Origin: Haliotis asinina | Lineage: Eukaryota > Mollusca > Gastropoda > Lepetellida > Haliotidae | Reading direction: 5' to 3' | Assembly: GCF_037392515.1 (NCBI RefSeq) | Contig: NC_090281.1 | Span: forward strand, 47,220,645 to 47,284,644 | DNA length: 64,000 nt | Shown here: positions 293-58,372 of the stretch, piece after piece | How the letters are laid out: each line of letters starts with the position of its first letter | How positions within the stretch are numbered: position 1 is the first letter of the stretch | The notes under the pieces: generated by a model | The model's input: only the letters and a program-made list of their open reading frames with translations | What the model was told of the DNA's origin: nothing | Databases searched by the model: none | Position numbers and translations under genes: made by a program

Positions 293-882
293 ATGATGTG
301 AGACATGTTTGACTTCAGCCATGCACCGAGTGATGTGAGACATGTTTGACCAGCTATGCACTGAGTGATGTAAGATGTGTCTGACTTCAGCTGTGCACCA
401 GATGATTTGAGACATGTTTGACTTCAGTTATGTACCAGATGATGTGAGACATGTTTGGATTCAGCTATGCATCGGTAATGTGAGACATGTTTGACTTCAG
501 CTATGCACCAGGTGATGTGAGACATGTTTTACTTTCATTTATGCACCAGGTGATATGAAACATGTTTGACTTCAGCTATGCACCAAGTGTTGTAAGACAT
601 GTTTGACTTCAGCTGTGCATTGGGTAATGTCAGACATGTTTGACTTCAGGTATGCACCAGGTGATATGAGACATGTTTTACTTCATTTATGCACCAAGTG
701 ATGTAAGACATGTTTGACTTCAGCTATGCATCGGGTGATGTGAGACATGTTTGACTGCAGCTATGCACAGGGTGACATGAGACATGTTTCACTTCATTTA
801 TGCACAAGGTGATGTAAGACATGTTTGACTTCAGTTATGGCCTTTGTAATGTGTGACATGTTTGACTTCAGCTATGCACCAG
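293..882 (+). repeat. Minisatellite of about 37 bp x 16 ending exactly on the NDOR1 splice acceptor
   Basis: About 16 imperfect units of the type GTGATGTGAGACATGTTT followed by GACTTCAGCTATGCACCAG. The last unit supplies the acceptor (TATGCACCAG at 873-882), and the exon itself begins GTGATGTTGTGATGG, matching the start of a unit. The array therefore looks like tandem copies of the intron-exon boundary, with about 10 exon bases in each unit. Units differ from one another by roughly 5-20%, so the array is not young. Confidence 0.85.
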
Positions 883-3800
883 GTGATGTTGTGATGGTTC
901 ATCCTGACAATCTGCCCGACATGGTGGAGGAGTTTCTTCATCATTTCAGCCTGGACCCAGACACAGAATTCACAGTTGAGCAGACTGATCCTGGTACGTG
1001 ATAACAGGGTGTTCAAGGATAAAATTCTGCATCTTAATAACAGAAAAACAACATGGTGTGCATCTACTGGGATACAGCAGTATTTATGATTCTTTAGCAT
1101 TGTTAGCCCATAAGCTCCCATTTTTCATGTTTGTTGATGAAGCTGTGATAGATAGTACCCTGTGGAACTTCATATCCTGTGAACAGCTTTTGATCATGCG
1201 TCGTATGGTAGAGTACTGTATCCAAACTTCACATCAAAGTGGAGTATCATTTTAACCTTGACCTGTAACTTTAAGTCTTAAAGTCCCCTGAACTCATTCT
1301 CCATTCCCTTCCCCACCCTCAAAGATCAAGAATTAAGATAAGGAACACATGGTAAACAAAAATGGGTTAGATTTGATCTTCAGTAACCCATACTTGTTGA
1401 AAAGGTGACTAACAGGATCAGGTGGTCATACTCACTGACTTGACTGACACATCATCATATCCCATTTGCACAGATTGCTGCTCATGCTGTTGATCACAGG
1501 GTTGTCTGGTCCAGCCTCAACTTTTTACAGATCACCGCTATATAGCTGAAATATTGACAAGTGTGGCTTATACTGGATCAAACAAACAATCATTTCATGC
1601 TCCTAACTGTATCCCAGTAATTGTCAATGAGTCAAACTCATTTGCCCATCTGTGGTTCTTCAGACATTCCACTGCCACCCTCCCTACCACGGCGTTGCAC
1701 TGTCGGCCATCTTGTGCAGAAGTATCTAGATATTGGGGGAATTCCACGAAGGTACTTCTTCGAACTTCTTTCACTTCTGTCGTCTGATGAGCTGGAGAAG
1801 GAAAAGCTGCAAGAGTTCTCGTCAGCAGAAGGACAGGTATAATGTAGCTTCATCTTTTGTATTTATGTACCTTTGGAAGTATATATACCTCTGAAGGTTT
1901 ATGTGCCCCTTTGAGCTTATGTGCTTTAGTAAGATTAGATATACTGTTAAGCCTATGTACCTCAGTACATTCATGTACCTATGTAACTGGCAAGTAAGTC
2001 CGAGTAGATCTGAAATCTTGTGTGTTTCTTTTAGCTTATGTTGGGTGGTAGGGTAGCCTAGTGGTAAAAGCACTGGCTCACACTGAAGACCAATGTTCAA
2101 TTTCTCACATGGGTACAGTTGTGAAGTGAGATTTTGGTGTCACCTCCCCAGCCCCACTAATCACTCACTCATTTAGGCTTTGGTACCTTTGTGGGTCGGT
2201 GGGATAGCCTAATGGTTAAAGCGTTCCCTCGTCATGCCGAAGACCCGGGTTCGATTTCCCACTTGGGTACAATGTGTGAAGCCCATTTTCTGGTGTCATC
2301 TGGCGTGATATTGCTGGAATATTGCTAAAAAGTGGAGTAAAACCAAACTCACTCACTCACTCATTTGGTACCTTTGCAATTTTATGTACCTCAGTACATT
2401 TGAGTACCTCTGTATGTTTATGCTCCTCTCCAAGGGTCGGGTGGTAAGGCTTGCTGACTTGGTGGGCACACGTCATCAGTTCCCAATCAATGTTCATGCT
2501 GTTGATCACTGGATTGTCTGGTCCAGACTCGATTATTTACGGCGCCATATAGCTGGAATATTGCTGAGTGTGGCGTAAAACTAAATTCACTCACTCACTC
2601 ACTTTTTCTCTAAAACAAACTGCCTCAAAATGACCTTTAAAGTACAGTCGCCATATAGGGGGAATATTGCTGAGTGCAGCGTATAACTAAACTCACTTAC
2701 TCTCTGTAAGTTTATGTACCTCAGTACATTCATGTACCTCCGTTAGTTTATGTACCACTGAAAATTGAGCATTGATCTACACAACTGGGAGACTGACATG
2801 TGTCAATAAAGTCAGTGAACCTGAACACCCATTAGTCAACTCTGCCAACAAACATGGATTACTGAAGTTCAACACCGATCTTCATGAGTCAGTGGAGGAT
2901 GTGTAATGTCTTCAGAATTTGTACTTGATTACTTACAGGAGGAGCTGTATACCTACTGCAACAGACCACGCCGGACGACCTTAGAGGTAGGTCTTCCTAT
3001 CACTGCTGATTAAAGTCCCATCAAAACAGTTTAAACATCAACCTGTAGCATCCTAGGTATTTATCTCCACAAACAATCCTGTCGAAGTAATAATAGTGTC
3101 CAGCTTTCATTAATGCCACAATGAGTTACTCAGATATTCTGAAAATGCTGTTCTCTGAGTACTCTCGACAGGTAAAAATTCAAAATTCAACACAGAATTA
3201 CTGTGGTAACCATAGACAGTCTGTGACTATTAGATTGAAAAGTCTGCAAGACATGGTTACCCAGCTACTTTTTGCAGTGATCAGTCAAGTTCTGAATATT
3301 CAAGTCATATCTGTATGCTTGTGTTCGGTGTTCAATGCAAGACTCCATATTCCATCTTTGCGAGAGCGGCCTCCAAATAATCAAACCTGGACCAGACATT
3401 CCAGTGACAGACATCATAATCATAGATCTATGCAAATGTGATATGATGACGTGCTCATTATCAACACTCAAGACATGTGAGGAAGTGGGGAATCCCAGTT
3501 GTTTCACATGTCACACAGAAGGTGCTATTTTGATTCCAGTCAACTCATTTACTCCCTCATTTCTATAGTCAATCAGTCAGCCAACCAGTTTGATCTGTAG
3601 CCTTCAACAATGGCCTTTGTGTTTTGATTACTTAAATTAGTCAACATCTAAATGACACAAGTAGAAATGTTCTCCTTCATTTACAGGTCTTACAGGACTT
3701 TCCACAGACCAGCAGGCAAATACCATTTGAGTATCTCCTAGACTTGATACCTCCACTGCAGCCAAGAGCTTTCTCAATAGCATCATCACAGCAGGTAGGG

Positions 3801-6800
3801 AAACAATTGTGTCATCACAGCAGGTAGGGAAACAACAGCATCATCACAGCAGGTAGGGAAACAATAGTATCATCACAGCAGGTAGGGAAACAATGGTGTC
3901 ATCACAGCTGGTAGGAAAACAATTGTGTCATTTCAGCTGGTAGGGAAACAATGGTGTCATCACAGCAGGTAGGGAAACAATGGTGTCATCACAGCAGGTA
4001 GGGAAACAATGGTGTCATTTCAGCTCGTAGGGAAACAATGGTGTCATCACAGCAGGTAGGGAAACAGTGGTGTCATCACAACTGGGAAGGAAACAATGGT
4101 GTCATCACAGCAGGTAGAGAAACAATGATGTCATCTCAGCAGGTAGGGAAACAATTGTGTCATCACAGCAGGTAGGGAAACAGTGGTGTCATCACAACTG
4201 GGAAGGAAACAATGGTGTCATCACAGCAGGTAGAGAAACAATGATGTCATCTCAGCAGGTAGGGAAACAATTGTGTCATCACAGCAGGTAGGGAAACAAT
4301 GATGTCATCTCAGCAGGTAGGGAAACAATTGTGTCATCACAGCAGGTAGAGAAACAATGATGTCATCTCAGCAGGTAGGGAAACAATTGTGTCATCACAG
4401 CAGGTAGAGAAACAATGATGTCATCTCAGCAGGTAGGGAAACAATTGTGTCATCACAGCACATAGGGAAAAAAGATGTCATCTCTGCCTATTATTGCACA
4501 CCATCTTGTGAACATCAAAGAAAATATCAAGTCTTGTGTTTTCCAGCTGGTTTTCCAGATACTTGGTAAACACTTCCACACTGAACAATGAAAACATCTT
4601 ATATTCTCAAGGTTTCATCACAATCACAACTGTTCGTCCATCTAGTGTGTTGCATTGTGGTGTGAGATAGGAGTCATTGTGGTGTAACCATTTCCTGACT
4701 GGGCAGATAACAGAATCCTTTTTTCATTTCTAGCAAACTCCAATCCATCTAAGCAGTATCTGTGGACCGTGTGTGACTTGTTATCATTGGTGGAAGATGG
4801 AAAAAATAACGCCATTATTTCCTGGAGAACAGACCAAAATAAAAATTATTTTCATGACATAGTAATATGATCTATCTATTTGTAACTGTCATTGTCATAG
4901 GATAATTCTTGTGTTTGATATTTTGAGAATTTGAATAACCTGTGAACCTGCTGTATTTATATTGATAAGAGAAATATTACACTTGTTAGTTATTATCATG
5001 GATATCAAGCTTGTACACCTAGATGATTTTGAAATCTAAAGGTAAAATGTTCCAAATATCAGTGACAATATTTTGTTTATAAACCATTTTGTCTTTAGAA
5101 AATAAACCACATATGACTTTTATTTAACTGGTAGTGACATGCTATCAAAACTGTAATTCAACAAATATTTTCCACAGAAGTCCCCCTCCATCTAAAAACA
5201 TAAAATCAGTGAGAAGAAAGTATTATTACACATAAATTCTACACAGCCTGTGATGCCATTATTTTTAAAAATATCTATACAATGTATCGTGGGCAATTTT
5301 TGTTTTAGACAATTCTGAAACTATACACTAATGAAGGAGATATATATATTATTTGTTTTGTCAAGTATTAATGTCCCTGCAACTTGTTATGATGAAATCT
5401 CCTTGTGTGCCCTTTGCATTCAACTAACACAATAAAAGGAGTTATACTCACCATTCATCTCTCCTCACAAGTAGTGAACATTCTTCCTGCCATGTGTGTA
5501 AAAATCAGTATAAAATTTTCCAATTAAATAGGTCTGTTTGACTGCTTACCGCATTGTAACCGTGACTGATGACATAACTAGCAGTCACAACAAAGGGGAA
5601 ATCACTCTCATTTAACCTCATTTCTTGTATTTTCCACACAACAAATAACAGTGGCTCAATCCGTCATGATATTTTTTTGGAAATTTTATTTACAATGCTA
5701 TCTGAAATGTGTTAGAACATTATTTTCTTAGTATTTTAATTAAAATGTCACTTGTAACATGAAAATGCACAATTGCATACAAATCATGCCATTATATGCT
5801 GGACTAGATTGATCCATCCTCGGATAAAGAATGAATGATCTTGTAAAGGAGAATATAGTAAATATTATATACTAAAGCATACAAGAATTTCCCATATTGT
5901 TAACCCAGATATATTTTATTGATGGTAAATTTCAAACATATGTTGAATCTGGTAATTTCTGTGACTGTTTCAGGCTACGCCAAACGAGATTCACTTGCTG
6001 GTCGCTGTAGTACGATACAGGACGAAGCTATTCAAACCACGGCGAGGAGTCTGTTCAACATGGCTGTCATCTCTCAGAGCTGACCAAGATATCTATGTTC
6101 CAGTTTGGGTGAAGAGAGGAACGATACACTTCCCCACCTCACTACAGACACCTACCATCATGGTGGGACCAGGTTAGTGGTCTACACTCAGTGTATGAGA
6201 GGAACTATAAAGCAATGTGTTTTAACCTGCCACCATCCTACAGTATTATACACCACTTACTGGCCCCTGTCTGTGTTCCAGGAACTGGGGTTGCTCCCTT
6301 CAGAAGTTTCATCCATGACCGAGCTGCCTGCAATGCTGGAGGTATGTGTTTTCTCTTGGGTCTTTACCAGATTTGATCAGTGTTCTGTATATGGACTTTG
6401 AATTGTGGTTACCAATGCTTTTCAAGGTCAGTTTGGGAGGGTCATGCTCCACAGTTTCAGAGCCAGATGTACAGGATGTAATGGTGCCATATTGGTCACA
6501 GCGCCCTGTGAGAGATGTTACTGTGTAATTAGGTTTGTACTGATACAGTGTAAAATACAGTGTAATAAGGGTTGTATTTAAGCATGAAAGTTAAGTAATT
6601 ATTGTCACATTGAACTGTGGAACCTATTGTTATATCGTTCAAACTGGGGTTACTAGAAAATTAGATAACACACATGACCTGCCGGCTCATTGTTTTGTCT
6701 TGGTCAGTGTGTATCACCAGCAACACAGCGAGTGAAATTTGTGTCAGTCATATCATACTTTGTATCTGTACTTCACCAGAAAATGAGCAACCATGGTGAC

Positions 6801-7494
6801 TTGTCTAGATGCTGTTTGGAGCATTGTGTTGTTCTTTATATCTTTAGCTTCCTTCACCATGAGTAACCATGGTAACTTGTCTACATGCTGTTTCAGGCAA
6901 TGTGTTATTCTTTGGTTGTCGAAGTCAGTCGGCTGACTACTACTGTGGAAGAGAATGGGAGGAGCTGAGTGGGCGGGGTCTGCTGCAGGTGCTGACCGCC
7001 TTCTCCCGTGACCAGGAACACAAGGTCTATGTCCAGCACCTCATCAGGGACAATGCGGCGCTTGTCTGGGATCTCCTTGACAACCACCAGGCCTGGTTTT
7101 TCATTGCTGGGTAAGTCATTCATACGTCATTGCCTCAGAGCTGTAGTGGATCAGCTTCCTTGTCTCACGGCTGCAGTGGCGCTGTTTCAATGTCTCAAAG
7201 CTGTTGTGGAACTGCCTCCTTTTCTCACAGCTGCAGTGGCGCTGTTTCAATGTCTCACAGATTCAGGTTGCTTCAAAAGCTTGTTGATTATCATTAGCAT
7301 TAGGTATCTGAGAATGATTATTGAACACAAGATCTTCTACTCTTCACAGGAACGCCAAGAGGATGCCGGATGATGTGAAGGAGGCACTACAGGATGTTGT
7401 GATGTCGGCCGGAGGGAGGAATGCTACGGAGGCCGCAGAGTACATCACACAGATGGAGGCCAAGAAACACTACCAGGTGGAGGCCTGGTCATGA
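883..7494 (+). CDS. NDOR1: NADPH-dependent diflavin oxidoreductase 1, C-terminal eight exons (5' part outside window)
   Basis: NDOR1 passes electrons from NADPH through FAD and FMN to CIAPIN1/anamorsin for cytosolic iron-sulfur cluster assembly. Exons read as 883-993, 1664-1836, 2939-2986, 3687-3794, 5974-6172, 6282-6341, 6897-7110 and 7350-7494 (TGA). All have GT-AG borders and matching phases, giving about 352 residues. In order I see GDVVMVHP (start of the FAD-binding module), YLDIGGIPRRYFFELL, EEFSSAEGQ-type residues followed by ELYTYCNRPRRTTLE, the FAD motif RAFSIASS, RRGVCSTWL, the NADPH loop MVGPGTGVAPFR, FFGCRSQSADYY, YVQHLIRD, FIAGNAKRMPDDV and the C-terminal EAWS (human ends ETWA). 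The N-terminal flavodoxin domain must lie before base 1. Two exon borders here are duplicated as tandem repeats. Identification is by motif memory and is strong. Confidence 0.95.
1363..1578 (+). repeat. SINE family B, worn copy in NDOR1 intron
   Basis: Shows the family B landmarks in order: GATCTTCAGTAACCCAT, GACTTGACTGACACAT, CATGCTGTTGATCAC, GTCTGGTCCAG and a final TATAGCTGAAATATTG. The (CACT)n tail is missing. Family B has no obvious tRNA-like head but shares its 3' end with family A. Confidence 0.75.
1858..2042 (+). repeat. Short-period tandem repeat (TTTATGTACCTCxG type)
   Basis: Units of about 17 bp, such as TTTATGTACCTCAGTAC, are repeated and decayed. The same repeat resumes at about 2370-2425 and 2700-2765, so one older array has been split by the SINEs between these points. 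Confidence 0.7.
2043..2177 (+). repeat. SINE family A, degenerate copy
   Basis: Has GGGTAGCCTAGTGGTAAAAG (2051-2070, box A-like), a decayed box B region, CATGGGTACAGTTGTGAAG and an ATCACTCACTCATT tail. The tRNA-like head drives pol III transcription in this class. Confidence 0.75.
2196..2364 (+). repeat. SINE family A, well-preserved copy
   Basis: Head with GGATAGCCTAATGGTTAAAG (box A-like) and GACCCGGGTTCGATTTCCC (box B), then ACAATGTGTGAAGCCCAT, GATATTGCTGGAATATTGCT and a CTCACTCACTCACTCATT tail. This is one of the most complete copies in the window. Confidence 0.85.
2432..2606 (+). repeat. SINE family B
   Basis: GCTTGCTGACTTGGTGGGC, CATGCTGTTGATCACTGG, GTCTGGTCCAGACTCGATT, GCCATATAGCTGGAATATTG and a TTCACTCACTCACTCAC tail are present. 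The copy begins inside the family, lacking the first 40-60 bases. Confidence 0.85.
2648..2702 (+). repeat. SINE 3' tail fragment
   Basis: Only the shared 3' end is present: GCCATATAGGGGGAATATTG, then TGAGTGCAGCG and CTCACTTACT. Confidence 0.65.
2768..2890 (-). repeat. SINE family B fragment, reverse orientation
   Basis: Read on the minus strand it has the family B 5' half: TTCAGTAATCCATGTTTG, GTTCACTGACTTTATTGACACAT-type landmarks and a cut end near GATCAATGC. Confidence 0.65.
3365..3485 (-). repeat. SINE family B fragment, reverse orientation
   Basis: The minus strand carries the TGGTCCAGGTTTGATTATTT block and decayed flanks of family B. It lies in the NDOR1 intron before the exon at 3687. 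Confidence 0.55.
3795..4461 (+). repeat. NDOR1: Minisatellite, 23 units of 29 bp, starting exactly on an NDOR1 splice donor
   Basis: The exon ends CATCATCACAGCAG and the intron starts GTAGGGAAACAA. The 29-bp unit GTAGGGAAACAATGGTG + TCATCACAGCAG repeats 23 times with no length change, so the last 12 exon bases and the donor are re-created in each unit. Most units keep CAG/GTAGGG. A higher-order pattern (alternating ATTGTG and ATGATG units from 4230 on) shows recent expansion of pairs. Since 29 is not a multiple of 3, use of a later donor would shift the reading frame. Confidence 0.92.
4462..5973 (+). other. AT-rich intron sequence, nothing recognised
   Basis: Remainder of the NDOR1 intron. 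I see no exon, SINE landmark, tandem array or long inverted repeat here; it is AT-rich with short homopolymer runs. Confidence 0.6.
6771..6917 (+). repeat. NDOR1: Twofold duplication of an NDOR1 splice-acceptor region
   Basis: Two copies about 76 bp apart. Each runs from CTTCACCA through AACCATGGT, ACTTGTCTA and ATGCTGTTT into the first 20 or so exon bases (GCAATGTGTTATTCTTT; first copy GCATTGTGTTGTTCTTT). The second copy contains the real acceptor TTTCAG at 6891-6896; the first has TTTGGAG in its place and looks dead. Confidence 0.85.
7125..7268 (+). repeat. Short tandem repeat in last NDOR1 intron
   Basis: Two long units of about 66 bp, each with two subunits of the type CTCACAGCTGCAGTGGCGCTG + TTTCAATGT. 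They start 15 bp after the donor at 7110 but do not include it. Confidence 0.7.
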
Positions 7495-8545
7495 TGTAGT
7501 GGATGTCTTAAGCTGAAACAGAGATGGACTTGATGTAACGGATCTGTTCACCTGAACAGAGCGTTACTTGATTTAATTGATCTGTTTAGCTGGGAAGCCA
7601 GTGGACTAGTAGCCTAGCTAGATGGAGACATGTCTAATTTATTGTTTTTTGGATGTTTACACCAGATCACTTGTGTCAACATATATGTGGATGAAAACCT
7701 CAGATCCCTGAACACAAGGCTCAATGAAACTTGTTCCAATAACTCACCCTGAAGTGTCACTTCTAGATGCCTTTTAAGGATGTATCCTAGTCAGATATTG
7801 GTGTAACATATTCAAGAGAATAATTGATTACAGGTATATCTAATGCATGAACAAAATGACAACAGCAGTGGTGATGGAACAAGATATGATGAAGCCATTG
7901 AAGGTTTTAATTGAACTGTATAATTGCCTGTTACCATGCATATGCACACATGAAGATAATATATACAGATAATATATGCACTGTCTTACGTTCAGCCTAC
8001 AAGGATGTGAGGACTTGAGATTGGAAAACCACACAAAAAACATCATACAATTCGGTCTTGACAGTTAAGAAAGGTTGAAAAGGTGAAACTGGCAGAGGAC
8101 ATGTTTAACTTTTAAATGAAGAAGATGAAGGTTTGGGGGAATTGAATTACAGCAGAATAATTTTATAATGAACAGGGATATAACCAACTGACAACTATAC
8201 CGAACAGTTTCAAAAGTCCTGAATAAACCTCCTAATATTAGAAGGAGAAGTTATGAATACCAATTCTCTATTACAAACTTAATGGATATACTGAACCAAG
8301 TTGCAATTGTGAAGGCTGTTTCCAATCAGTGCAACGGAATGTCCCAAGCTAATTCTGAATGTGATGGTGATGACATGAACTGTGATGAAACAGTCAAGAC
8401 CCCTCCTTCATTTGCTGATGCCAATATGGTGCTTCATGTCTGCTGCCGACCAAGTGTGGACAAAGAAAGATCACAGACTTTGTAGTGAAACGAATGTAAC
8501 TGTCGTATGAATGAATGAATAAACTAATTAGGAATGTATCGTACT
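7495..8545 (+). other. NDOR1: NDOR1 3' untranslated region (inferred)
   Basis: No gene is recognised here. An open frame of 67 codons at 8282-8485 has no recognisable domain. AATAAA sequences occur near 8222 and at 8518-8523; the latter is followed by a TG/T-rich stretch (TGCATGTTTTTATTGTTC), which makes it the likelier poly(A) site. Confidence 0.5.
8518..8523 (+). promoter_or_regulatory. NDOR1: Probable NDOR1 poly(A) signal AATAAA
   Basis: Canonical hexamer about 1 kb after the stop codon, with a GT/T-rich downstream element within 30 bases. The hexamer near 8222 is an alternative. Confidence 0.45.
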
Positions 8546-8727
8546 GCATGTTTTTATTGTTCTTTCAATGGAATTTTGTGGTCCCTTGGAGTTAATTATA
8601 AAGGTATTTTTCTGTAATACCACATGTAACAATAATACACTCAGCATCAAAAGCATGTGATTTCTTTCAGAGAAATTATGAAACTTGTTAAACTAGAAAA
8701 TACTGACATGGAATGTGTGACCTATGA

Positions 8728-8812
8728 AGATCTGGATTAGAATTGATCTTCAACAACCCATGCTTGTCATTGGGTGGTCAGACTCACTGACTTGGTTGAA
8801 ATCAATACCTAA
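8728..8812 (+). repeat. SINE family B 5' fragment
   Basis: GAATTGATCTTCAACAACCC, CATGCTTGTCATTGG and CACTGACTTGGTTGAAAT match the first half of family B; the copy then stops. Confidence 0.65.
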
Positions 8813-9088
8813 AATCAATCAGACTAAACAACCAAGAAAAAATTAACAAAATATGTCTGAAAGAGGAGTTGCACATTCAGCAGGCCCATGAACTTAGATA
8901 TATGTTTCTTAAACACCACATACATGCATTCTGGCTGACTCTGTACTGGGTATCTTCGTCTCATGTGGACCAACAGGCCCAGTTACACGAGCTCACTGCT
9001 GCGATGCATACAGCTCTCACCCATCCAACTGGTAGGTCACTGAGTCCCAGGAATGAATTACAAGCTGTGTAAACTGGGAAGTCTTAAG

Positions 9089-9238: not shown

Positions 9239-12200
9239 TCATTGTGTTAAGTATGTGTTGACATAATGCACTTCGTAACACCCGGTGTCAATGTTCTTCA
9301 ACAACTCTTCAGGGACACGATCCATAAAGAGTGAACACTCCTGGTTCTTGCGGATGTTGAACCGCTTGAACCCGGCGTCTTCTATCGCCTTCAGGGTATA
9401 TAGTCGTCTGAGTAGCTCGCCTGTGCTGGGGTTGATGTCGGTGTTGTACTCCACGAACAGCTGCCGGACTTGACTGAGCTCTCCGTGCTGGATCATGTAC
9501 CGGATCACCTTCCACTCCCTTCCGTTCAGGTCCATCTTCAAGACGTCTATCATCCTCTGAAACAGGTGACCATGTGTGTTAACATGCATGTTGGCTACGA
9601 ATCTGTGTTCACTCACGTGTTAAGTCCGTTTGAGACAAAATGATACCGATGAATTGCGGTCTAACTTGAAAACAGTCTTGCTTTTCGCGTCGTTTCTTTA
9701 GTTCCCACTGCGCCTTTGTTAGAAACTGGGGAAACGCTAAAAAAATAATAATGACAGTTTCTTAAACAACCTTGACAAAAATTAGATTTTCAATTCATCG
9801 GCATCATTTTCTTCTCAAACAGGGTAGTCGGAATGTACAGACATCGATAGCATGTGTTTGACCACCGGAACACGTTGTCTCTCGAATACCATACGATATA
9901 TCCCAGTCAGTAATTAACTAAACATTCACGTAACCTACTGTTGCAAGTTTTCTAACAGTATAAAACATATCGATATCCCTATCAACAACTGACCAAACAG
10001 TTCCTATAGCTTGTTACATACACGCCAGTTGGGCTAGCTATTCCTGAAAGTTGCCAGCCCACAAATTTCACTAGCCCTAAATTTGAATGTAGAAGCCATG
10101 CAAAAGATTAAACAAAGTTAATTATGCTGCTAATATGATAAATACTTGTATCAGGCCATAATCATGCATGATTTAAAAGTGTATTATAACTCAAGACGCC
10201 GGAGGGAGTGAAAAGCCAGTCGGGCCAGTGACTGTGGAGATTACAGGCCCCACTGGATTTGTACTAGCCACGAGCCAGAGGGCCAGTGACTATTTCGCAC
10301 GCTGCATACACATGTTTATGTGTATCGGTAAAGGGCTGACGTCATGATCAGATATAGCGACTAACCTCGTCATGACCAAGTGCATGTCTAATCTCCGCCA
10401 ACGTCATCACGCGACTGCTTTTACCCAAACTGTTACCCAGAGCGTAGTCGAAGTACTGGACAGACTTGGCCTTGACCTCTTTGTCTTGCTTCATGCTGTG
10501 GACAAGACGTTTCACTAAGTAGACACACGTATCTAAATGGTGCTGACAAACCATAGATGGGCGAATCTGGGATTCGAAACCTTGCATCGCGTATGGATCA
10601 ACAACGAATGCTGTGAATTACATTTACGACATGTGCAGTTTGAATAGAGTTTATTAATTTAGATATCTAAACAGCTGGACTGAAGGTCAATGAATTGATG
10701 GAACTTGGGCCTACAGAAAAGGTTAGTTATACAGTGATACTGAATAGCATTGGAATTCCTAGGGAGTAAACGCAGCATCATAAAACACTAGAAGACGGAG
10801 TTCTGTAGACTTCCTGGTTCTGTCTGAAGATGAATATCGCGGGAGAAATCTCGCGGTGAGTGCAGTGTATTATGTGCGGTAAAACAATGAAACACACAAC
10901 GATGTTATAAAGGAAACACAAAGTGATCGAAGTTGTCTTACGTTGGATCGAAGGAAAACACCTCACAGTTGTACAACCGAGCCAAATCCTGATCAAACTC
11001 GAAGCTTTTACCCCAGTGTGAACTGCAAGGAAAAGAATACACCGTACTAGAAATTAACCCAACAATGATGATGTTTTCATCATTGCGAACGGCACGCTAC
11101 GACGGTTCTTGTTGAGTCTCAGTCTCTGGAAACTAGTATATAAGATCAAACACGTTATCCCATAAATGAATTCTCGAATATAGATGAACATCTAAGTCTC
11201 ATTATAGAGCCTAGGGTTGTGGGGTAGCCTTGTGGTTAAACTGTTCGCTCGTGGCGCCGAGAAGACCCGGGTTCGATTCTCCACATGGATACAATGTGTC
11301 AAACCCATTTCTGTTGTCGCCCACCGTGATTTTGCTTAAATATTGAGCATTATAGTACTGTCGGAAATAGGAAAACCCCTTTTTTCACATATATCTCTAC
11401 GAAACATGCGAAAGTGTGAAATGCCTGTTAAACTAAGCGCGACCTACCTACGTTTCCAGTGGTAGGGAGATAGGAAACGTGAAAAAACACTTTCCTGAGG
11501 ATAAATCAGTGCGGGAATGAGCACTGCGGATTTTTGCAAAGTCCAGTGCGCCATATTTGGAAGTTTCACTTCCCGGTATTTCAGCGCCTGAGAATGTACA
11601 CACTAGTCTATTTTGTTTTTATTGGTTTGACTTTAACAAAATGGGCCTGCAGATTTCATTCAGGGCCTGTAGATTAAAGTATTGCAAACACTCGGCCTAC
11701 AGCTGAAAAAGTGATGAGAATTGGCTGCTAAAACCATCAGGGCAAAACTGGCTGATCTTATTGTCCTGTCTAGTTATGGATTTATGGGCTGTCAAAACAC
11801 TGGACCTGCATACCCGACAGAATTAACGATGCGATCTCTTTCTACCCGGTTAAGTCAAACGTTGACAGTACCTGCCCAAACTGTCAAGTAAAGCTTGCGA
11901 AATACCTGCTCGAAAGATCACATTCAGCGTTGAAGTGTGTATCTAAATGATCAAATAACTTTTACAGTGCCTACCCGACTCATAAGCTTTAAGTGCCTGT
12001 ACCCGAGTTTGAAAGTACCTACCGAATGGTCAAAGCTTTGACAGTACTTAATCGAATAATGCAGTTAAGCTTTCACATTACCTGGTCGAAGGAGTACGCG
12101 CTATAGTTACCGGCAGCTACCCGAAGGAGTATGTGCTACAGTTACTGGCACCTACCCGAAGGAGTACGCCAAGCAAGGTTTGACGGGTCTGAACTCTTCA

Positions 12201-15200
12201 TCGTCACAAATCTGCCATCCTTCATCGCCAACAGGACCCGCCTGCAACATGCGTTCACATGGCTGCTCGATGTTGTCCAGGTAGCTGAGGAGAAATACTT
12301 CATTGTTAGCATCTGTGCTACCATATACCATGGAAAAGTATGGGATATCACCAAGGCAGTACATTCACTTGCGGCGTAAAAGGCCTGTTATTCTTTCACG
12401 TCTCATACTTGGACAATGTAGGCTAAATGCTTACAGGAGTATTATAGACAAAACGGCTTCCTGTCAAATGGCTTAGGAAGATTTTAACACTCTGTCATCT
12501 GAACCTACTGCGTTTCTAATGACTGAGTATTTCATGTTTCAGAAATGGACGTGATTACTTAAGATGTTCAATCCGTAACACGAAGCAGAGCTTAATCGAT
12601 ATAATGTATACATCTATCCAGATAAATACTGATTGTGTTGTCTCTCCTTTTATGTTAACTAAACGATTGGCGATGAAATTACCTATGATTGTTTTTAACA
12701 TGAAATCAGTGTGTTGGGCGTAAAAATTCGCTCTAAAACAATAAAACCCACCAATCCACCACTGCGGCGCGTGAGCCGGAACCTCAATAAAACGTTGTTG
12801 AGAGGTTGCGAGAAACGGTGGGGGTAAGCATTCTAAGGTGCCACGTTTACTTTGCCGTTAACACCCACTGTCATCAGTTCCATTCCTAGCGTTTCCCTGA
12901 TTATGTTTCTAGGTTTGTCAGCTACAGACTGGTGGCCATGGCCTGACGTTGCCCCAACACCAGTTTAACATGCCCTGATGTAACCGAACTACTGCCCAAA
13001 GGGGGCGGAAAGAAACCCAGCTCACACACACACATGTCATTTTATCAGGCTTAAACGGGATCCGCCCGGACATGTGCAAAAAATTAAAAAAATAGCTGAA
13101 AAAAATATTGCTGGCAACTCTGCAATGTCACATTTACAACGATTAACTCCTATGGTCTGAACCCATATGTTTGTCCTTGTGGCTGAGCTGTGTATCTGAC
13201 CTATGTGTCTGCACGACTGCGGTGACACTGACCCGCATGCCAACACGACTGTGGTCACACTGACCTGTGTGCCTACATCACTGTGGTGATACTGACCTGC
13301 GTGCCTACATCACTGTGGTGAGACTGACCTGTGTGCCTACACGATTGTGGTGACACTGACCCGCATGCCAACATGACTGTGGTCACACTGACCTGTGTGC
13401 CTACATCACTGTGGTGAGACTGACCTGCGTGCCTACATCACTGTGGTGAGACTGACCTGTGTGCCTACACCACTGTGGTGACACTGACCTATGTGTCTAC
13501 ACCACTGTGGTGAGACTGACCTATGTACCTACAAGACTGTGGTTACACCGACCCGTGTGCCTACACGACAGTGGTGATACTGACCTTTGTGCCTGCATGT
13601 CTGTGTGATTGACCTGTGTGTGTACACCACTGTGGTGAGAATGACCTATGTGCCTACACAACTGTGGTCACACTGACCTAAGTGCCTACACGACTGTGGT
13701 CACACTGACCTGTGGTATATTTCCAGGATTTCCGCTTCCTTGAGCTGCTCCAGTTCCTGCGCTACCTCAAAACCCTGTCAACACGAAACAGGTCATCAAC
13801 ATGTTGCAGAAAGTGGGTGTGAATATTATCTATGAGGGATGGATACATGTGTACCATTTCGTTTAGCCCGATGTGTACGTGTGCGTATGTGTGTGCATGT
13901 GCGTGTTTAATCACACTAACTATTAGTGAATAAGTTTTGTTTTACGCCGCTTTTAGCAATATTCCAGGAATATCATAACGGGGGACACCAGAAATTAGCT
14001 TCGCATATTGTACCAATGTGGGGACTCGAACCTTGGTCTTCGGCGTGACGAGCGAAGGTTTAGCATGTAGACGACTCCACCGTCCCTGCTATCTATTAAT
14101 TCTATAATAGTGTGATGGGGTTGTGATGTTGGTTAGATTCAAAAGTGACCGCTCTTCAGTGCTGAAACACGAGTTTGATTCCTCCGTCGTAACAAATAGT
14201 GAACTGTGTCATTTTTTAATGATAGTTTGTCAAACAACATTTTTCATTTATTTTCTGAGGACATAAATTCTGTAAAATAATGACAGAGCTGGTCTGATAT
14301 TTTTATTATGATTAGTATTTCATTGAGTATTATATGTTTTTATTAGTTATTTTTAGTTAGACTTTAATACATAGGTCCGTGTTTTTTTGCCAAACTGACT
14401 TTACATCAGTGCCATTTGTATCACTGCAAGAAACTCTTCGTAACTTCAGAATTTTACTTCACTGACAACCATCAAATCTTATATATCACTTTAACCACCA
14501 CATAAACAGAAATTCATCTAGAAACCACTAACCAAACAATCTTCTGTGTCGCGTAGATTGTGTCCCGGTGTTGTTTATCCCTTGTTTGTGACGCCGAGCG
14601 GGTTAATCTCCACTTCACGGACCGATTCACATATTACCTTAAAGAGCTTATCAGTGTTTTGCCTGCAAGGCACCTGTCAATAGGGATGGATTAAGTCTAT
14701 TCTGTCAAATGTTGCCTTTCTCTGCTAACTTCAAGCAGAGCTGCTGGATGCGGACACGTAAATGTATAGAATCTCAAATCATGAACTCGTGACACTGTCG
14801 CAAAGACAGATGTCCGAATATCAAATAGAACTCTTCCATTTCAGCTTCTCGTATGCATCACTTGAAAGCGGCATGGTTAATTATCGTATACCAATGTTCT
14901 GGGTGTGCTATATAACTTCTATTATTTGTAGTGAATATATATCTCTGGAGTCCATCATTTCATAGGTTAATCCCAGGATTATAGAGCAACAATCGCTATG
15001 CCAGGGTTATATGGCACCGAAGTCCATACCAGGATTATATGGCAGCAAAGTCCATACCAGGAGTACATGGCACCAAAGTCCATACCGGGAATATATGGTG
15101 CCAAATGCCATAGCGGGACTATATGGCCTAAGAGTCCATGCCAGGATTGTATAGTGCCAAACCCCGTACCAGGACTATATGACACCAAATTTCATGCCAG

Positions 15201-42935: not shown

Positions 42936-42955
42936 TTAACACTGCAGTAAGTAGG

Positions 42956-43070
<115 letters not shown>

Positions 43071-48425: not shown

Positions 48426-48429
48426 GTAA

Positions 48430-49140: not shown

Positions 49141-49991
49141 TTGATTTCACGCTACGGTCAGCATGTATTGCTCATGCTTAATCGCCAATCTACCTGTAGC
49201 AACCAAGTGTAGATAACTTGCCCTGCCTGCTTGTCACAAACACATTCACTGCGCTGGCTCATCTTATACTTGTCAAGCAGTATGTAGATGGGATTTTTGT
49301 AAACTGTGTGAGAGGAGCTTTTTTTCACCTTAGAGTGGTATCTTTTTTTAATTTATTGATTATGATGAAACGAATACATTATATTTTTAAATTTTCCTAA
49401 TATCTGAATTCGGTATTGCTTGTTGTGGTTAGAATTAATAAGGATTTTTTTGGGTATAAATTATTACTTCATTATATATAATATGTGTTCATATGGCCTG
49501 TGATTGTGTTTAAAAATGCAAGTATGCATTGTATATGCAGCATTTGAAATAACAACCTGCTTGATCGCTCACGATGGGGTATTTTCAACACAGACTGCCA
49601 GATTGTCAAATTCTCCTGCCTGATGGTTGAGTTTAAGTTTAGGATAATAATTCATTATTAATTCACACACAAATCAGAATTGAACAAATAATTTTTTTAG
49701 TGCGTTGGCACTTTTGGTTTTTGTGGTCTGGTAAATTTTGATCAGGGCTGGCAAGTTTTGCATCTAACCACCTTTTGCTCTGGCTGAAATATGGGGAGTT
49801 TTATACCCTGGTATACCTGTGAATGTCAAACCTTTGCTTTGCTTTTCATGTTGACTGTAATTTGTGAACAGTAAAGTGAGAATATATGTAAATAGAGCCA
49901 TTAATCAATTTGTGACAGACTGGTTTGCAGCTGCTGCTCTGTGAACGAAAGTTTATATCACTGTGTTTTCAGGCAATGTTGACAGATCAAA

Positions 49992-52900
49992 ATGGTTGGA
50001 AGCATCAGCACCACCGCAGACACAACCAACGGTCAGTTTTCACCTGACACAACCAGAAATGGTGAAATGGGTGACGACTCCAAGGGGAAACAACTCTTAG
50101 CAGGGAGTTATGAAGGGAGACAACCCATGGATAATGAAGAATTACACTTAACTGGCAAAGAAGATGGAAAAGATGTGGAAAGAGATAATAATGAAGGGAC
50201 CCGACTTGTTCTAGATGAGAGTGAACACGGGGATGCGGAGGGTGATGAGTGTGAGGTTCAGGTTGATGTGGAAGACAAACCTAACCAGAGTGTTGATTAT
50301 GGATTTTACAAGTGGATTGTTGTCTTGGGATGTTTTTTTCAACATTTTTTAACAGGTATGTCAAGTTCAGCATTTAATACCTATAAACACTAAAAAGACT
50401 AGATGAATTTGTGCTTTTGATATATACCTCTTACAAGGTATTAAACAACACTGTTATATTTCAGTTGAGTTTAGTTAATGGTGACATTACATCTAGAGAC
50501 TCAATGGAAGTACAAGGTGCTGCTCAACTTCCTTGAGTGGTATACATATTTGACAGACATTATCACACATGAAGCTTAAATGCCTTTTCATGCCAAACTG
50601 ATGTCAAAACACAACAAATGACGAAACGTGAACTGAAAAGTGACCCTAATGAAATGTAACAGTTAGGTTGGTTTTAATTTCTTTATGCCTTATGTTTTAC
50701 AAAGTGTATGCATATTTGCTGTTTGCTCTGATAGTCTAGGGCAGTGGGGTAGCCTAGTGATTAAAGTGTTCGCTTGTCACGCTACCAACATGGGTACAAT
50801 GTGTGAAGCCCATTTCTTGAGTCCAGTGCTGTGATATTGCTAAAAACGGCAAAAAACCATATGCACTCACTCTAAGAATAATTGTTTTCCACAGGGGGTT
50901 TTGAGCGATCAGATGGAGTGCTGTATCTAAAGCTGATCAACAGATTCAATGAGAGTGCCCAAGCTACAGCCTGGGTAGGGTCACTGTCATCGACTGTCCG
51001 TCTCATTCTGGGTATGTATGAAGTGAACAGGTGTTGATGAGCAGGTGTCCATTGCCTCTCTGTTTACTGTTTGAACAAATATCTCCAGGACCCCAGCTGA
51101 TCTAACCCCACTGATATAACATGATCTGATCTGACCCCACTCATCTGACCCCAGCTGATCTGACCCCAACTAATGTTACCCAATAATCTGACCCCACTGA
51201 TTTGCCCCACTAATCTGATCTCGCTAACCTGACCCCACTGATCTGATCCCAGCTGATCTGGCCCCACTAATCTTACCCCAGCTAATCTGATCCCTCTAAC
51301 CTGACCCCACTGACCTGATCCCAGCTGATCTGGCCCCACTAATCTTACCCCAGCTGATCTGACCCCACTGATTTGCCCCACTAATCTGACCCCACTGATC
51401 TGATCCCAGCTGATCTGGCCCCACTAATCTGACCCCAACTGACCTGACCCCACTGATTTGCCCCACTAATCTGATCCTGATAACCTGATCTCAGCTGATC
51501 TGACCCCACTAATCTGACCTCAGCTGATATAACCCCACTGTACTGACCCCAGCTGATCTGATTCCGCTGATATGACCCCAGCTGATCCGTCCCCTGCTTA
51601 TCTTACCCCACTGATCTGACCCCTCACCCACAACCCACCCTAATGATGTACAGTTTTTGGTATTATTCAGCCATCTTAGTTCTAAATTAAAGTGTTTTGT
51701 ATGATGGGGTCCAGCATAGGTGTTGCAGTTTTACGCTATATCAAATTTTCACCTTAATTTGACTTTTTAGCTTTATCTTTTATTCGTCTTGCATGAGTCC
51801 TCAGATGTGGTAACACATAATCCTCTTTATCGGTGCTTGTTTCTGTCTAAAACAGATCCTGAACTAGTTCCAGTCATTGGAATCAAAATGTCAATTGCCT
51901 CCGTGAAAGCTGCATTATACTGCATAGTTTTGTGCTGGGAATGAAAACTAGGTTCACAGTATTGTTTTGTCCATTTTCCAGGCCCTGTGTACAGTGCCTT
52001 CAGTAACGTATCCACTTTTCCAGGCCCTGTACTTTCAGTAACATATCCACTTTTCCAGGCCCTTGTGTCCAATGCCTTCAGTAACATATCCACTTTTCCA
52101 GGTCCTGTGTCCAGTGCCTTCAGTAACCGTTTTTCAAGTCGAGTGGCCACCATAGCGGGCGGCCTCATCATGACTGTTGGTGTCCTCATCAGTGGCTTCG
52201 CTCCAAACCTCATCTTCCTCTACTTCAGCTATGGTGTAATTGGAGGTGAGTGGGATATTTTTACAGAAATTTTTTTCAGACTCTTCCACTTGTAATAAGT
52301 GAAATGCACATGCTGTAACCATCTCCTTCCCTGTCACCACCTGCACTGTTTCACTAACTCACACAGTCATCCACTTCCACTTCTCACCATCCGACTCCTC
52401 TCCACTTCACTTCCACTCCAGATGCTGTATTTGTATTCAATTTATTGGCCACAGCTTGTCATTTACATCTGACCTTATCATTGTCATTATCAACAAACCG
52501 CTACTTTTTGGTGCTTTTTTCAAAATCAGACAGCTGAAATAGACATAATATTGCTGACTTCTTCCCTTTCTCCCACCTTCACCCCTTCACTCACTCACTC
52601 ACTCCAACCTTCACTACTCTTCATCCTGTAATGTTTACGTTCTTTCCACTCCACTCTTCTCCACTCTGCTCCACTTTCTTCGCTCACCTCAACTTCACTC
52701 TGCCCCTGTTCCACTCCTCTCCAACCTGCTTCTCTCACTCTGGACCTGTAAAAGTACGAGTAGAATAGGCTTTCAGCAACCCATGCTTGCCATAAAAGAC
52801 GACTATGCTTGTCGTAAGAGACAACTAACGGGATTGGGTGGTCTGGCTTACTGACTTGATTGACGCATCTGATCGGTTCCCAATTATGCAGATCGATACC

Positions 52901-55900: not shown

Positions 55901-57718
55901 GAAAAATATCTAAATGATTACTTTCCTCCATCGGGATGATCTCACAAGAAGTTAGAATTCTGATGTCACTCACTCATGTCCTATCAAACATGCTCCTTTG
56001 TATCTAAACTAATAAGGGAAGATGGGTTTCCTAGTGGTTAAAGTGTTCATACTTCATGTCAAAAACCCCCATTTTATTCCCCATGAAGTCTATTGTATTC
56101 CCTATGATATTGCTGGAATGTTACTAAAAGTGACTTAAAACTTAAAGGTCACATGCAACGTAAAACACAACTTTGCAGATTCTGGTACCTATCGGTATGC
56201 ACTTACCGAAACAAATCATAAAAAATGCCAATTCAACCTATAAAGTTGAAAAAATCGCGATGAAAAAAAAGCCCGCGAAATCGGAGTTCAAACGTTTCAC
56301 TAAATTGCCCCCAGCGCTGGGGGGAAAACTGGTTTCAATAGCTGTGCTGCGCTGCGCTGCGTCCATAACGCATGCGCAGTGAATAGGTTCGCGGAGCTTG
56401 AAACAGTATGCATGCCCAGCGTCTGAGGTTGTGAGCAGTAGTCTAATGTTGGTTGTGTACACAAACAAGTAAATAATGTACTCGTTACGTAAAAAAAAAC
56501 TTGTTGATTGTGGTAAGCAGTCTTTGTCACAGAGAAAGCTCAGTGTCTGGATTATTCACGCCAATGTGTCTGCCTGCCCGTCTGCTAAAGACAACATGCA
56601 ATACACAGCTTCAGTCATTGACCACGTGCAATTTGAACTTAACACCTATCAGACTATACGACATAAAGAAAATAAGATGATTTATGACTCGTGCACCCGA
56701 GTCCCGTGTCAGCCACATTATGTAACTAAGCACGTGTGATACACATGACATGTTTTTATGTCTGTGGGTTGCAAAGAAACTACATTCATTTTATTCGGAT
56801 GACTGGATCTGACGGAAACTGGTGCAAACTCTTATCAGCTTCAAGTCCTGCTTTGTACTTGGACGAACGACAGTTTCCAGTTCACCATCTCTGCTGAGAT
56901 AATTTTTGATTGGATCGAACGAAAATTCAGAGAACATGTATTTTCCAAACCCAACATCTCTATTTTCATTCTTCATGGATAACGACTTCTTTCAGTGTAT
57001 ATGATTTTGTTTGACAACAGTGTATGAATCCATACTGAAACGACGCATCAAGTACACAAAAAGAAGTTGTTATCCATAAAGAATCTTACTTTCTGGTGAC
57101 TGGCTATACTTCTAACATGCCCATCAAACAGATCATCTTTCTGTACACACAACGAACCCTCAGCAGATCAGCAAATGAAACAGCCAATCGGAAGCCGTCG
57201 TTACACTTGAGTGCATATCCACCCGCTATGACTGGGTTCGGTCTCCCGAGGGCTTCGTTTCGGGGGAAGTAAGCCCAAGTACAAAATATTGTACTTTTGA
57301 ATCGCGATTGTACGCTTATAATTTTGTTTATTTGTTTTTTTAAAAGCAGCAATGTATATTATATGTCATGAATAAGTGAAAAATGTGTTTTAATTATGCT
57401 TGATTTTTTGGTTGCATGTGACCTTTAACTCACTCAGATCAGTGGAAATCAAACATGATATAATATTGTCATCAGAAGAAGCTGTAGGATCTCCTCCTCT
57501 TCTTCTTTGGTTATTTCCAAAATCAGAAACTGAAACATGAAGTGGATTTGTACCGGACTGTTTCAGGTGTGTTCAAGGATGTGTTTGGCAACTACACCAT
57601 GGCATTCTACTTCGGTGGAGCCATGATCATCCTGGCAGCTATCATCATGATCTTCTCCAATGTCCTGCTGGCGATACAGAGAAGGAAGCAGGCCAACAAG
57701 GAGGGGAAGGTGGTGTAG
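49992..57718 (+). CDS. Monocarboxylate transporter-like protein (SLC16 family), copy 2, six coding exons
   Basis: Coding exons: 49992-50355, 50895-51011, 52102-52245, 53579-53843, 53995-54809, 57567-57718 (TAG); product 618 residues. An acceptor at 49972 shows a 5' noncoding exon upstream. Exon lengths 2-4 (117, 144, 265) and all phases equal those of copy 1, so this is a tandem duplicate. Helix 1 reads DYGFYKWIVVLGCFFQH, again without the usual DGGWGW; the helix-5 motif is QYFANKPGLAVGLATSGVG. The loop between helices 6 and 7 (about residues 290-410) is basic and unlike copy 1. The C-terminal half (PALAKSRGCTEREAALLMSV, GLYGALTGAYVSQKSVI, GTLIGPPVSG) is closely similar. It ends QRRKQANKEGKVV. 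Substrate unknown. The stop codon is the first base of a tandem array. Confidence 0.9.
50740..50875 (+). repeat. SINE family A in intron 1 of transporter copy 2
   Basis: GTGGGGTAGCCTAGTGATTA, ATGGGTACAATGTGTGAAGC, CCATTTCTTGAG, GATATTGCTAAAAACGGC. About 20 bases around box B are deleted. Confidence 0.8.
51087..51640 (+). repeat. Minisatellite of CTGATCTGACCCCA units in intron 2 of transporter copy 2
   Basis: Irregular units of 14-17 bp (CTGATCTGACCCCACT, AATCTGACCCCAGCT and others) in higher-order groups. Starts 75 bases after the donor and does not include it. Strongly C-rich on the plus strand, with no G outside the TGA/CTG steps. Confidence 0.9.
51982..52101 (+). repeat. Three-unit version of the exon 3 acceptor array in transporter copy 2
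   Basis: Units start at 51982 (42 bp), 52024 (35 bp) and 52059 (43 bp), each ending ACTTTTCCAG or CCTTTTCCAG-like, before the true exon at 52102. Acceptors at 51981 and 52023 are in frame with exon 3; the one at 52058 is not. Same sequence family as 29369-29914. Confidence 0.9.
52421..52497 (+). pseudogene. Decayed duplicate of the exon 4 acceptor region, transporter copy 2
   Basis: GATGCTGTATTTGTATTCAA, TTTATTGGCCACAGCTTGTC and ATTTACATCTGACCTTATCA parallel the true exon border at 53559-53630 (GATGCAGTATTTCAATTCAG, GTATTGGCCGGAGCTTGTCG, TATACCCCTGGCCTTGTCAC). About 75% alike by eye. The duplicate has no AG at the acceptor position and its frame is lost. Both are preceded by a CACTTCCACTCCA-type pyrimidine tract. 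Confidence 0.75.
52560..53560 (+). repeat. Pyrimidine-rich (CTCTGCTCCTGTTCCGCT-type) minisatellite before exon 4 of transporter copy 2
   Basis: Two blocks (52560-52745 and 52965-53560) of units such as CTCTGCTCCTGTTCC and CACTCCACTCTGCTC, interrupted by a SINE at 52755-52950. It ends 18 bases before the exon 4 acceptor at 53578, forming in effect an oversized pyrimidine tract. Long open frames on both strands are artefacts of this composition. Confidence 0.88.
52755..52950 (+). repeat. SINE family B inserted in the pyrimidine-rich array
   Basis: GAATAGGCTTTCAGCAACCC, a doubled ATGCTTG(C/T)C block, CTGACTTGATTGACGCATC, GCTGTTGATCACTGGATTG and GGTCCAGACTTGATTATTTT. It lacks the 3' tail and passes straight back to the array. 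Confidence 0.82.
55535..55805 (+). repeat. Dispersed repeat family C, copy 3
   Basis: CTGAAATTTGAATGTAGACA, AATAACTTAACAAGTCGCAG, GGTGATATATTTGCAAAATGA, CTATGACTGTGGAGATTTAC, TTTTTACTAGACACGGGC and GGCTATTTTGTACACTG. This is the longest of the three copies and lies in intron 5 of transporter copy 2. Confidence 0.72.
56018..56145 (+). repeat. SINE family A, 5' part, split by the Kolobok-like element
   Basis: GGGTTTCCTAGTGGTTAAAG, TTCATACTTCATGTC, TATGATATTGCTGGAATG, AAAAGTGACTTAAAACTTAA. The tail (CTCACTCAG) resumes at 57429, after the inserted element, with TTAA on both sides. Confidence 0.8.
56146..57424 (-). mobile_element. Kolobok-like DNA element with THAP-like relic, copy 2 (inverted)
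   Basis: Ends AGGTCACATGCAAC and GTTGCATGTGACCT, with TTAA at 56142-56145 and 57425-57428. It has the same order of blocks as 41674-42935 on the opposite strand: the CCCAGCGCTGGGGG palindrome, the THAP-like block (minus strand about 56880-56740, with SLHQFPSDPVIR), the inner hairpin (56970-57085) and TTCGGTCTCCCGAGGGCTTCG. Here the THAP-like start CAAGICH has been partly lost. It sits inside a SINE A tail, so it is younger than that SINE. Confidence 0.78.
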
Positions 57719-58372
57719 GTGGAGTGTCCAATGATGTGTGGTAGATGAGGTGTCCAAGGATGTGGTGTAGATGGAGTGTTCAAGGATGTTTGGTAGGTGG
57801 AGTGTTCAAGGATGTTTGGTAGGTGGAGTGTCCAAGGATGTGGTGTAGGTGGAGCGTCCAAGGATGTGGTGTAGATGGAGTGTCCAAGGATGTGTGGTAG
57901 ATGAGGTGTCCAAGGATGTGGTGTAGATGGAGTGTCCAAGGATGTGTGGTAGATGAGGTGTCCAAGGATGTGGTGTAGATGGAGTGTCCAAGGATGTATG
58001 GTAGGTGGAGTGTCCAAGGATGTGTGGTAGGTGGAGTGATGAAAGATGTGGTCTAGATTGAGCGTCCAAGGATGTGTGGTAAGTGGAGAGTCTGAGAGTG
58101 GGATGTAGGTTCAGTGTCGAAGGCTGTGGTGCAGCTGGAGTGCCCGAGAATGTTGTGTGGTTGGAGAATCTGAGAATGGGGCATTAGTGGAGTGTCTGAG
58201 GATGTGGCGTAGGTGGAGAGTCTGAGAATGGGGTGTAGGTGGAGAGTTAAAGGATGAGGATGTGTTGTCGGTGGAGAGTTGATGGATGTGGTGTAAGTGG
58301 AGTCGAAGGATGTGATGTTGGTGGTGTGTCAGAGGATGTGTTGCAGGTGGAGAGTCTGAATGTCCAAGGATG
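57707..58372 (+). repeat. 26-bp minisatellite beginning on the stop codon of transporter copy 2
   Basis: Coding sequence ends GGGAAGGTGGTG TAG. The unit GTGTAGGTGGAGTGTCC + AAGGATGTG contains that TAG and repeats about 13 times cleanly to 58040, then in worn form to 58372. It forms the start of the 3' UTR. Minus-strand open frames (HPWTLHLHHILGHS) are artefacts. Confidence 0.9.

What the first reader, a model, noticed from the sequence alone, without database searches (positions are those of the whole stretch)
293..58372. Tandem repeats in this locus repeatedly start on splice sites or a stop codon
At least seven repeat units contain a real exon border: NDOR1 acceptors (882, 6896) and donor (3794), METTL24-like donors (13710, 12156), and the exon 3 acceptor in both SLC16 copies (29914, 52101). 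A decayed duplicate of an exon 4 acceptor (52421) and an array that begins on a stop codon (57716) add to this. Several units include 10-26 exon bases. Other minisatellites in the window (14985, 26884, 43375, 51087) do not touch exons, so it is not universal, but the excess looks too large for chance. Possible causes are duplication at transcription/splicing-linked DNA breaks, or selection sparing duplications that keep one working site.
Basis: partly seen in the sequence, partly recalled or inferred. Interest (0 to 1): 0.85.

Follow-up and report, generated by a model that had tools for sequence, protein, structure and literature searches.

The report
Minisatellites spanning exon ends ("mirages")
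In this snail-type genome several short tandem repeats are built from the end of an exon plus its splice site (or a stop codon), so the gene can still work through the one copy that touches the exon while non-coding decoy copies pile up beside it; the same oddity is known from amphioxus.

Summary
The core observation holds. Corrections: the first NDOR1 acceptor is most likely 871/872; 6896 is one decayed duplication; the two SLC16 arrays count once, since array plus exon 3 look like a gene-conversion patch (98.6% identical against 51-75% in other exons).

If arrays may invade an exon by at most one unit, about 1.4 are expected. In DNA from elsewhere in the genome (186 kb, 142 exon matches) 2 of 33 arrays straddle a match, 1.9 expected. 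So border arrays recur elsewhere, in two kinesin genes, but a genome-wide excess is not shown.

This matches the amphioxus "mirage" (PMC3087553, passages read). Best explanation: short duplications across an exon end are tolerated because the exon-side copy still works; minisatellite turnover then enlarges the array in non-coding DNA. Arrays on stop codons argue against a splicing-specific cause. Splicing and polymorphism were not testable.

The parts
294..889 (+). 37-bp x 16 array ending 18 bases inside an NDOR1 exon (acceptor 871|872)
   Evidence: TRF; exon model; exon start supported by the match to P450 reductase
3783..4482 (+). 29-bp x 24 array starting with the last 12 bases of NDOR1 exon 3687-3794 and its donor GTAGGG
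   Evidence: the joined protein runs gap-free over this junction against P450 reductase
6783..6913 (+). single decayed duplication (76 bp apart) across the NDOR1 acceptor 6896|6897; the upstream copy has lost the AG
   Evidence: 85% over 55 bp; not reported by TRF
7492..7586 (+). 38-bp x 2.5 array beginning on the NDOR1 stop codon TGA 7492-7494 (not in the finding)
12087..12169 (-). 35-bp x 2.4 array holding 14 exon bases and donor 12156 of the METTL24-like gene
   Evidence: the exon matches Methyltransf_22 when joined to the next
13196..13714 (-). 32-bp x 16 array holding 5 exon bases and donor 13710 (CAG|GTCAG) of the METTL24-like gene
   Evidence: GT intact in 17 of 17 copies
29360..29940 (+). 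42-bp x 13.8 array ending 26 bases inside SLC16-1 exon 3 (29915-30058)
   Evidence: exon 3 start GPVSS aligns gap-free to MCT2 (run with SLC16-2)
51970..52127 (+). about 3.5 copies of the same 42-bp unit at the SLC16-2 exon 3 acceptor (exon from 52102), ending 26 bases inside the exon
   Evidence: 91% DNA match to the end of the SLC16-1 array
51970..52245 (+). patch shared with SLC16-1 (array plus exon 3), read as gene conversion: 142 of 144 exon bases identical
   Evidence: other exons 51-75%, intron stretches outside the array 44-60%
57710..58359 (+). 26-bp x 21 array starting with the last 9 coding bases of SLC16-2 (stop TAG 57716-57718)
52403..52485 (+). decayed duplicate of the SLC16-2 exon 4 acceptor region (true acceptor 53578|53579)
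   Evidence: 78% over 85 bp; a separate duplicate, not an array

Best explanation
These are 'mirages': minisatellites whose founding duplication spanned an exon end. Such a duplication need do no harm, because the copy touching the exon still supplies the splice site or stop codon, and the other copy falls into the intron or 3' UTR, where its few coding bases are not read. Ordinary minisatellite turnover (unequal exchange, slippage, gene conversion) then multiplies the unit on the non-coding side. Shown: units span the border; the exon-side copy gives the protein expected from homology; straddling arrays enter the exon by no more than about one unit; most internal copies keep an intact splice dinucleotide; the same structure occurs in two kinesin genes elsewhere in the genome. 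Inferred: the founding duplication, its neutral tolerance, that splicing uses the exon-side copy, and that array plus exon 3 was copied between the two SLC16 genes.
For: Border-spanning units seen base by base. Clean multi-exon proteins with the exon-side copy, gap-free over the NDOR1 donor junction against P450 reductase and over the exon 3 junction against MCT2. Of seven splice-border units examined, 37, 29, 35, 32 and 35 bp are not multiples of three and 42 and 39 bp are, so length is not held to frame. Dinucleotides intact in donors 58 of 60 and acceptors 29 of 38 copies examined, anchor copies included, so decoys are not purged overall. Two of eight arrays sit on stop codons. Two more cases in kinesin genes at C9 and C14. 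The rate outside the window fits plain tolerance: 2 of 33 arrays, 1.9 expected.
Against: In the window tolerance alone predicts about 1.4 straddling arrays and 8 are seen; unless this is ascertainment, something adds to it. Long arrays (8 or more copies) lean to borders: 5 of 9 in the window, 2 of 5 outside (P 0.04; P 0.09 by the kinesin-only background). The C9 kinesin acceptor array keeps only 3 of 9 AGs, which could mean selection against decoys there. Internal copies of SLC16-1 would stay in frame with exon 3, so their use is not excluded by frame. No RNA was available.
Confidence: 0.7

Rival explanations
1. Arrays arise or persist preferentially at the edge between constrained coding and unconstrained DNA: selection protects the anchor copy and forbids deletions through the border, so border-anchored arrays live longer and grow longer than purely intronic ones.
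For: Window excess 8 against 1.4; long arrays 5 of 9 in the window and 2 of 5 outside; stop codons behave like splice sites.
Against: No excess over all arrays outside (2 of 33, 1.9 expected; 1 of 33, 1.35 expected, without matches that hold a stop). The long-array test is post hoc, P 0.04 or 0.09, and 1 of 5, P 0.25, without matches that hold a stop.
Confidence: 0.15
2. Splicing- or transcription-linked DNA breaks at exon borders seed the duplications.
For: Six of eight straddling arrays sit on splice sites.
Against: Two sit on stop codons; donors and acceptors are hit equally (3 and 3); 142 exon matches elsewhere carry two such arrays.
Confidence: 0.05
3. Chance in a locus that is simply dense in minisatellites.
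For: Array cover is 7,138 of 64,000 bases here against 4,328 of 185,772 in the sample; free placement expects 6.3 straddlers, P 0.24.
Against: Free placement would also let arrays swallow exons; no array here does so (two lie inside exons with 21-bp units). With swallowing barred the expectation is 1.4. 8 of 23 here against 2 of 33 outside is Fisher P 0.011, but 5 of 20 against 2 of 33, after dropping the stop codons and the converted copy, is P 0.09.
Confidence: 0.08
4. Relics of intron gain by tandem duplication of an AGGT-bearing exon segment.
For: The C14 kinesin unit is 33 exon bases plus GT, and the join of two units makes the donor GTGAGT.
Against: In the two introns checked the far end is not repeat: the NDOR1 array ends at 4482 and the next exon starts at 5974; in the C14 kinesin non-repeat intron follows the array before the next exon.
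Confidence: 0.02

Closest known systems
'Mirages' in amphioxus: Adh3, globins BflGb6 and BflGb9 (PMC3087553, passages read), troponin C and PGBD5 (PMC3902484, one passage read). The Adh3 paper of 2002 they cite is not held
   Same: Minisatellite-like tandem duplications across intron-exon boundaries, at both kinds of border; many internal copies keep AG/GT signals
   Different: Here a mollusc; units 26-42 bp, inside the 10-72 bp quoted for Adh3 but shorter than the about 150-160 bp of the globins; also on stop codons; one array shared between two SLC16 genes, apparently by gene conversion; haplotype variation and splicing, reported in amphioxus, not tested here
Internal tandem repeats at exon-intron boundaries of human genes in segmental duplications (PMC2812944, outline and passages read)
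   Same: Minisatellites of about 30-bp units at exon-intron boundaries
   Different: There linked to alternative splicing and novel introns with transcript evidence; here the exon-side copy gives the expected protein and no transcripts were seen
[quoted passage not shown]
   Same: A duplication crossing an intron-exon boundary supplies extra splice signals
   Different: No new intron is shown here, and the far ends of the two introns checked are not repeat

Membership tests
Mirage (amphioxus) | Tandem repeat unit spans an exon-intron border, exon-side copy authentic | tested here: met
   6 arrays in the window, 2 in kinesin genes; authenticity by homology, not by transcripts
Mirage (amphioxus) | Many internal copies carry AG/GT signals | tested here: met
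   Donors 58 of 60, acceptors 29 of 38 copies (7 of 8 splice-border arrays examined); the C9 kinesin acceptor only 3 of 9
Mirage (amphioxus) | Regular splicing undisturbed | not testable with these tools
   No transcripts; indirect support from gap-free protein matches over two junctions
Mirage (amphioxus) | Length instability between haplotypes | not testable with these tools
   One assembly only; the two SLC16 paralogues differ, 13.8 against about 3.5 copies
Intron gain by tandem duplication (AGGT model) | Both ends of the intron derive from the duplicated segment | tested here: not met
   Checked in two introns: NDOR1 after exon 3687-3794 and the C14 kinesin
Intron gain by tandem duplication (AGGT model) | Intron absent from relatives | not tested
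   No other mollusc genome was available

The most novel reading that the evidence does not exclude
In this genome the boundary between coding and non-coding DNA is itself a preferred home of long minisatellites: border-anchored arrays at splice sites and stop codons form a separate, longer-lived class that lengthens introns, fills them with decoy splice sites and acts as a start point for gene conversion between paralogues.
Probability: 0.18. Interest if true: 0.65.

Novelty: new member of a known kind. Interest (0 to 1): 0.4.

Why it matters
In the papers read, mirages are described from lancelets. Finding them in a mollusc, in six genes of four families (NDOR1, METTL24-like, two SLC16, two kinesins), suggests a general outcome of minisatellite birth wherever one copy of a border is enough. 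The arrays are natural splicing tests: more than 20 near-identical donors in a row in NDOR1, of which presumably only the first is used. The near-identical patch of array plus exon 3 that stops at the exon 3 donor suggests such arrays may help exchange between paralogues.

Tried and rejected
Rejected as mirages after checking: L070 3357-3731 (starts about 120 bp beyond the donor); L015 567-1164 and L042 1964-2733 (stop about 36 and 18 bp short of the acceptor). A C7 array found by DNA search (L003, L004) is an unrelated minisatellite. An abalone TSSK1-like intron minisatellite in print (PMC6905558, passages read) seemed to hold exon letters; a 22-letter part of its unit is not in this genome at up to 1 mismatch. 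TRF finds no array at the exon 3 donor of the split TSSK gene here, and none was seen by eye at its exon 4 acceptor. Other SLC16 copies were listed (best-scoring other match 44% identical, short matches up to 50%), but their borders were not read. Literature searches on the phenomenon: of which 63 and 84 named molluscs or Haliotis. I saw no earlier mollusc case in the listings; most of the listed papers were not opened.

Caveats of the counts. One search gave 71 rows, merged by hand to 30 arrays of period 10 or more; rows of shorter period were dropped as arrays of their own, and 7 arrays outside the gene regions were left out of the null. The null bars arrays from lying wholly inside exons, although 2 of the 23 do. 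METTL24-like exon D has an uncertain acceptor, and the frame between exons C and D does not close in my model. The outside sample was first counted with part of the exon rows (130 rows typed, 122 inside, 2 of 33 arrays, 1.7 expected). One search repeats it with all 127 myosin and 63 chaperonin rows and the 35 of 130 kinesin rows that lie in fetched DNA: 142 exon matches inside, 61 of them myosin on C5, most from one cluster of paralogues. Without the rows that hold a stop, 102 matches remain and 1 of 33 arrays straddles (1.35 expected); the C9 kinesin match drops out then because it runs past its donor. Kinesin stretches were picked for closely spaced exons before any array in them was looked at. 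Exons unmatched by the family models were not counted. The 50 kb beside the window (L072-L076) was not in the test; it holds two upstream NDOR1 exons, with no array at them.

Full report
The window is 64 kb of a held assembly of 1.14 Gb in 159 contigs. It looks like an abalone-type gastropod; that name is my recall of its short interspersed repeats and was not tested. Four gene regions were modelled from splice signals, open frames and homology: NDOR1 (8 exons in the window, clean frame to the stop), a METTL24-like gene on the minus strand (5 exons, Methyltransf_22 by Pfam), and two SLC16 monocarboxylate transporters; SLC16-2 gives a clean 618-residue protein. The modelled NDOR1 part matches P450 reductase over its whole length and SLC16-2 matches MCT2.

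TRF gave 71 rows, merged to 30 arrays of period 10 or more covering 7,138 bases, 11% of the window; 23 lie in the gene regions. Eight of these straddle one of 50 exon ends by 3 to 26 coding bases: acceptor 872 and donor 3794 of NDOR1, donors 12156 and 13710 of the METTL24-like gene, exon 3 acceptors 29915 and 52102 of the SLC16 genes, and the stop codons 7494 and 57718. Two others lie wholly inside coding exons, with 21-bp units. The copies, written unit by unit, show for example TCATCACAGCAG|GTAGGG repeated about 24 times from the last 12 bases of an NDOR1 exon.

How unlikely is it? If arrays may lie anywhere, 6.3 straddlers are expected and 8 is ordinary (P 0.24). That null lets arrays swallow exons. 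If an array may invade an exon by at most one unit, 1.4 are expected and none of 1500 or 4000 simulations reached 8. Dropping the stop codons leaves 6 of 21 against 1.2 (P 0.0015); dropping the second SLC16 array leaves 7 of 22 (0 of 4000); arrays with 8 or more copies give 5 of 9 against 0.6 (0 of 4000). All of this is on the window that suggested the idea.

An outside sample was therefore built from the same genome with exon matches to the Pfam myosin head, chaperonin and kinesin models. It is 186 kb in 47 stretches with 142 exon matches and 33 arrays covering 4,328 bases (2.3%). Two arrays straddle an exon match, 1.9 expected (P 0.57); of arrays with 3 or more copies 2 of 12, 0.9 expected (P 0.20); of arrays with 8 or more copies 2 of 5, 0.4 expected (P 0.04). 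With only the kinesin stretches as background the last becomes P 0.09. Leaving out exon matches with a stop inside gives 1 of 33 against 1.35 and 1 of 5 (P 0.25). So border arrays exist elsewhere; an excess is not established.

The two outside cases are plain. In a kinesin on C9 a 39-bp unit, 8.9 copies, ends 24 bases inside the exon whose start reads ACAG|GTGTTCACAGCGCTAAGATC. In a kinesin on C14 the 35-bp unit is 33 exon bases plus GT, repeated 19.6 times; the join of two units makes the donor GTGAGT, and after further non-repeat intron the next exon continues the kinesin frame.

What the copies say about mechanism. The seven splice-border units examined are 37, 29, 35, 32, 42, 35 and 39 bp, five of them not multiples of three, so use of an internal copy would mostly shift the frame. 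Internal copies mostly keep the splice dinucleotide (donors 58 of 60, acceptors 29 of 38, anchor copies counted), with one array (C9 kinesin) keeping only 3 of 9. So decoys are not generally purged; whether they are used was not tested. SLC16-1 is an exception in frame: its 42-bp array is open and in frame with exon 3, so extra 14-residue steps are conceivable; in SLC16-2 the same array is broken by indels.

The SLC16 pair holds a second finding. Exon 3 is identical at 142 of 144 bases between the copies, while exons 1, 2, 4, 5 and 6 are 51, 75, 66, 61 and 65% identical and intron stretches outside the array 44-60%. The simplest reading is gene conversion of array plus exon 3 long after the gene duplication; the patch stops at the exon 3 donor, where alignable homology ends. 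The two arrays are therefore best counted as one event.

The best account is tolerance: a short duplication across a border is harmless because one border is enough, and normal minisatellite turnover does the rest. Two arrays on stop codons generalise this beyond splicing and weigh against splicing-linked breaks. Whether anchoring also makes such arrays more frequent or longer stays open.

The kind is known. [quoted passage not shown] PMC3902484; passages read). Human minisatellites at exon-intron boundaries have been linked to novel introns (PMC2812944, passages), and a duplication across such a boundary made a new intron in potato (PMC4974935, abstract). Not seen in what I read are the mollusc, the stop codons and the conversion patch.

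Noticed in passing
29360-30058 and 51970-52245: Array plus exon 3 nearly identical between SLC16 copies whose other exons are 51-75% identical: a likely gene-conversion patch that stops at the exon 3 donor.
   Followed up: yes
29341-30066: The SLC16-1 array is open in frame with exon 3 (42-bp unit), so in-frame isoforms with 14-residue repeats are conceivable.
   Followed up: partly
52300-53560: About 1.2 kb of strongly C/T-rich simple sequence (GC skew -0.19 over 52001-56000) upstream of SLC16-2 exon 4, with a decayed copy of the exon 4 acceptor region near its left end.
   Followed up: partly
42600-43000 and 56160-56560: Similar open frames on opposite strands in the ORF list suggest a dispersed repeat present twice in opposite orientation.
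   Followed up: no
40054-40623 and L075 177-569: Open frames that look like Tc1-type transposase fragments (recalled likeness, not searched).
   Followed up: no
9239-11022: The frame between METTL24-like exons C and D does not close in my model; a missing small exon or a broken gene is possible.
   Followed up: no
L070 3357-3731: A 24-bp array about 120 bp beyond a kinesin donor whose unit itself contains GGTGAGTAT, a donor-like sequence.
   Followed up: partly
window 32096-32152 and 54160-54202: Short 21-bp tandem repeats wholly inside exon 5 of the two SLC16 genes, the kind of in-frame repeat that coding DNA can bear.
   Followed up: no
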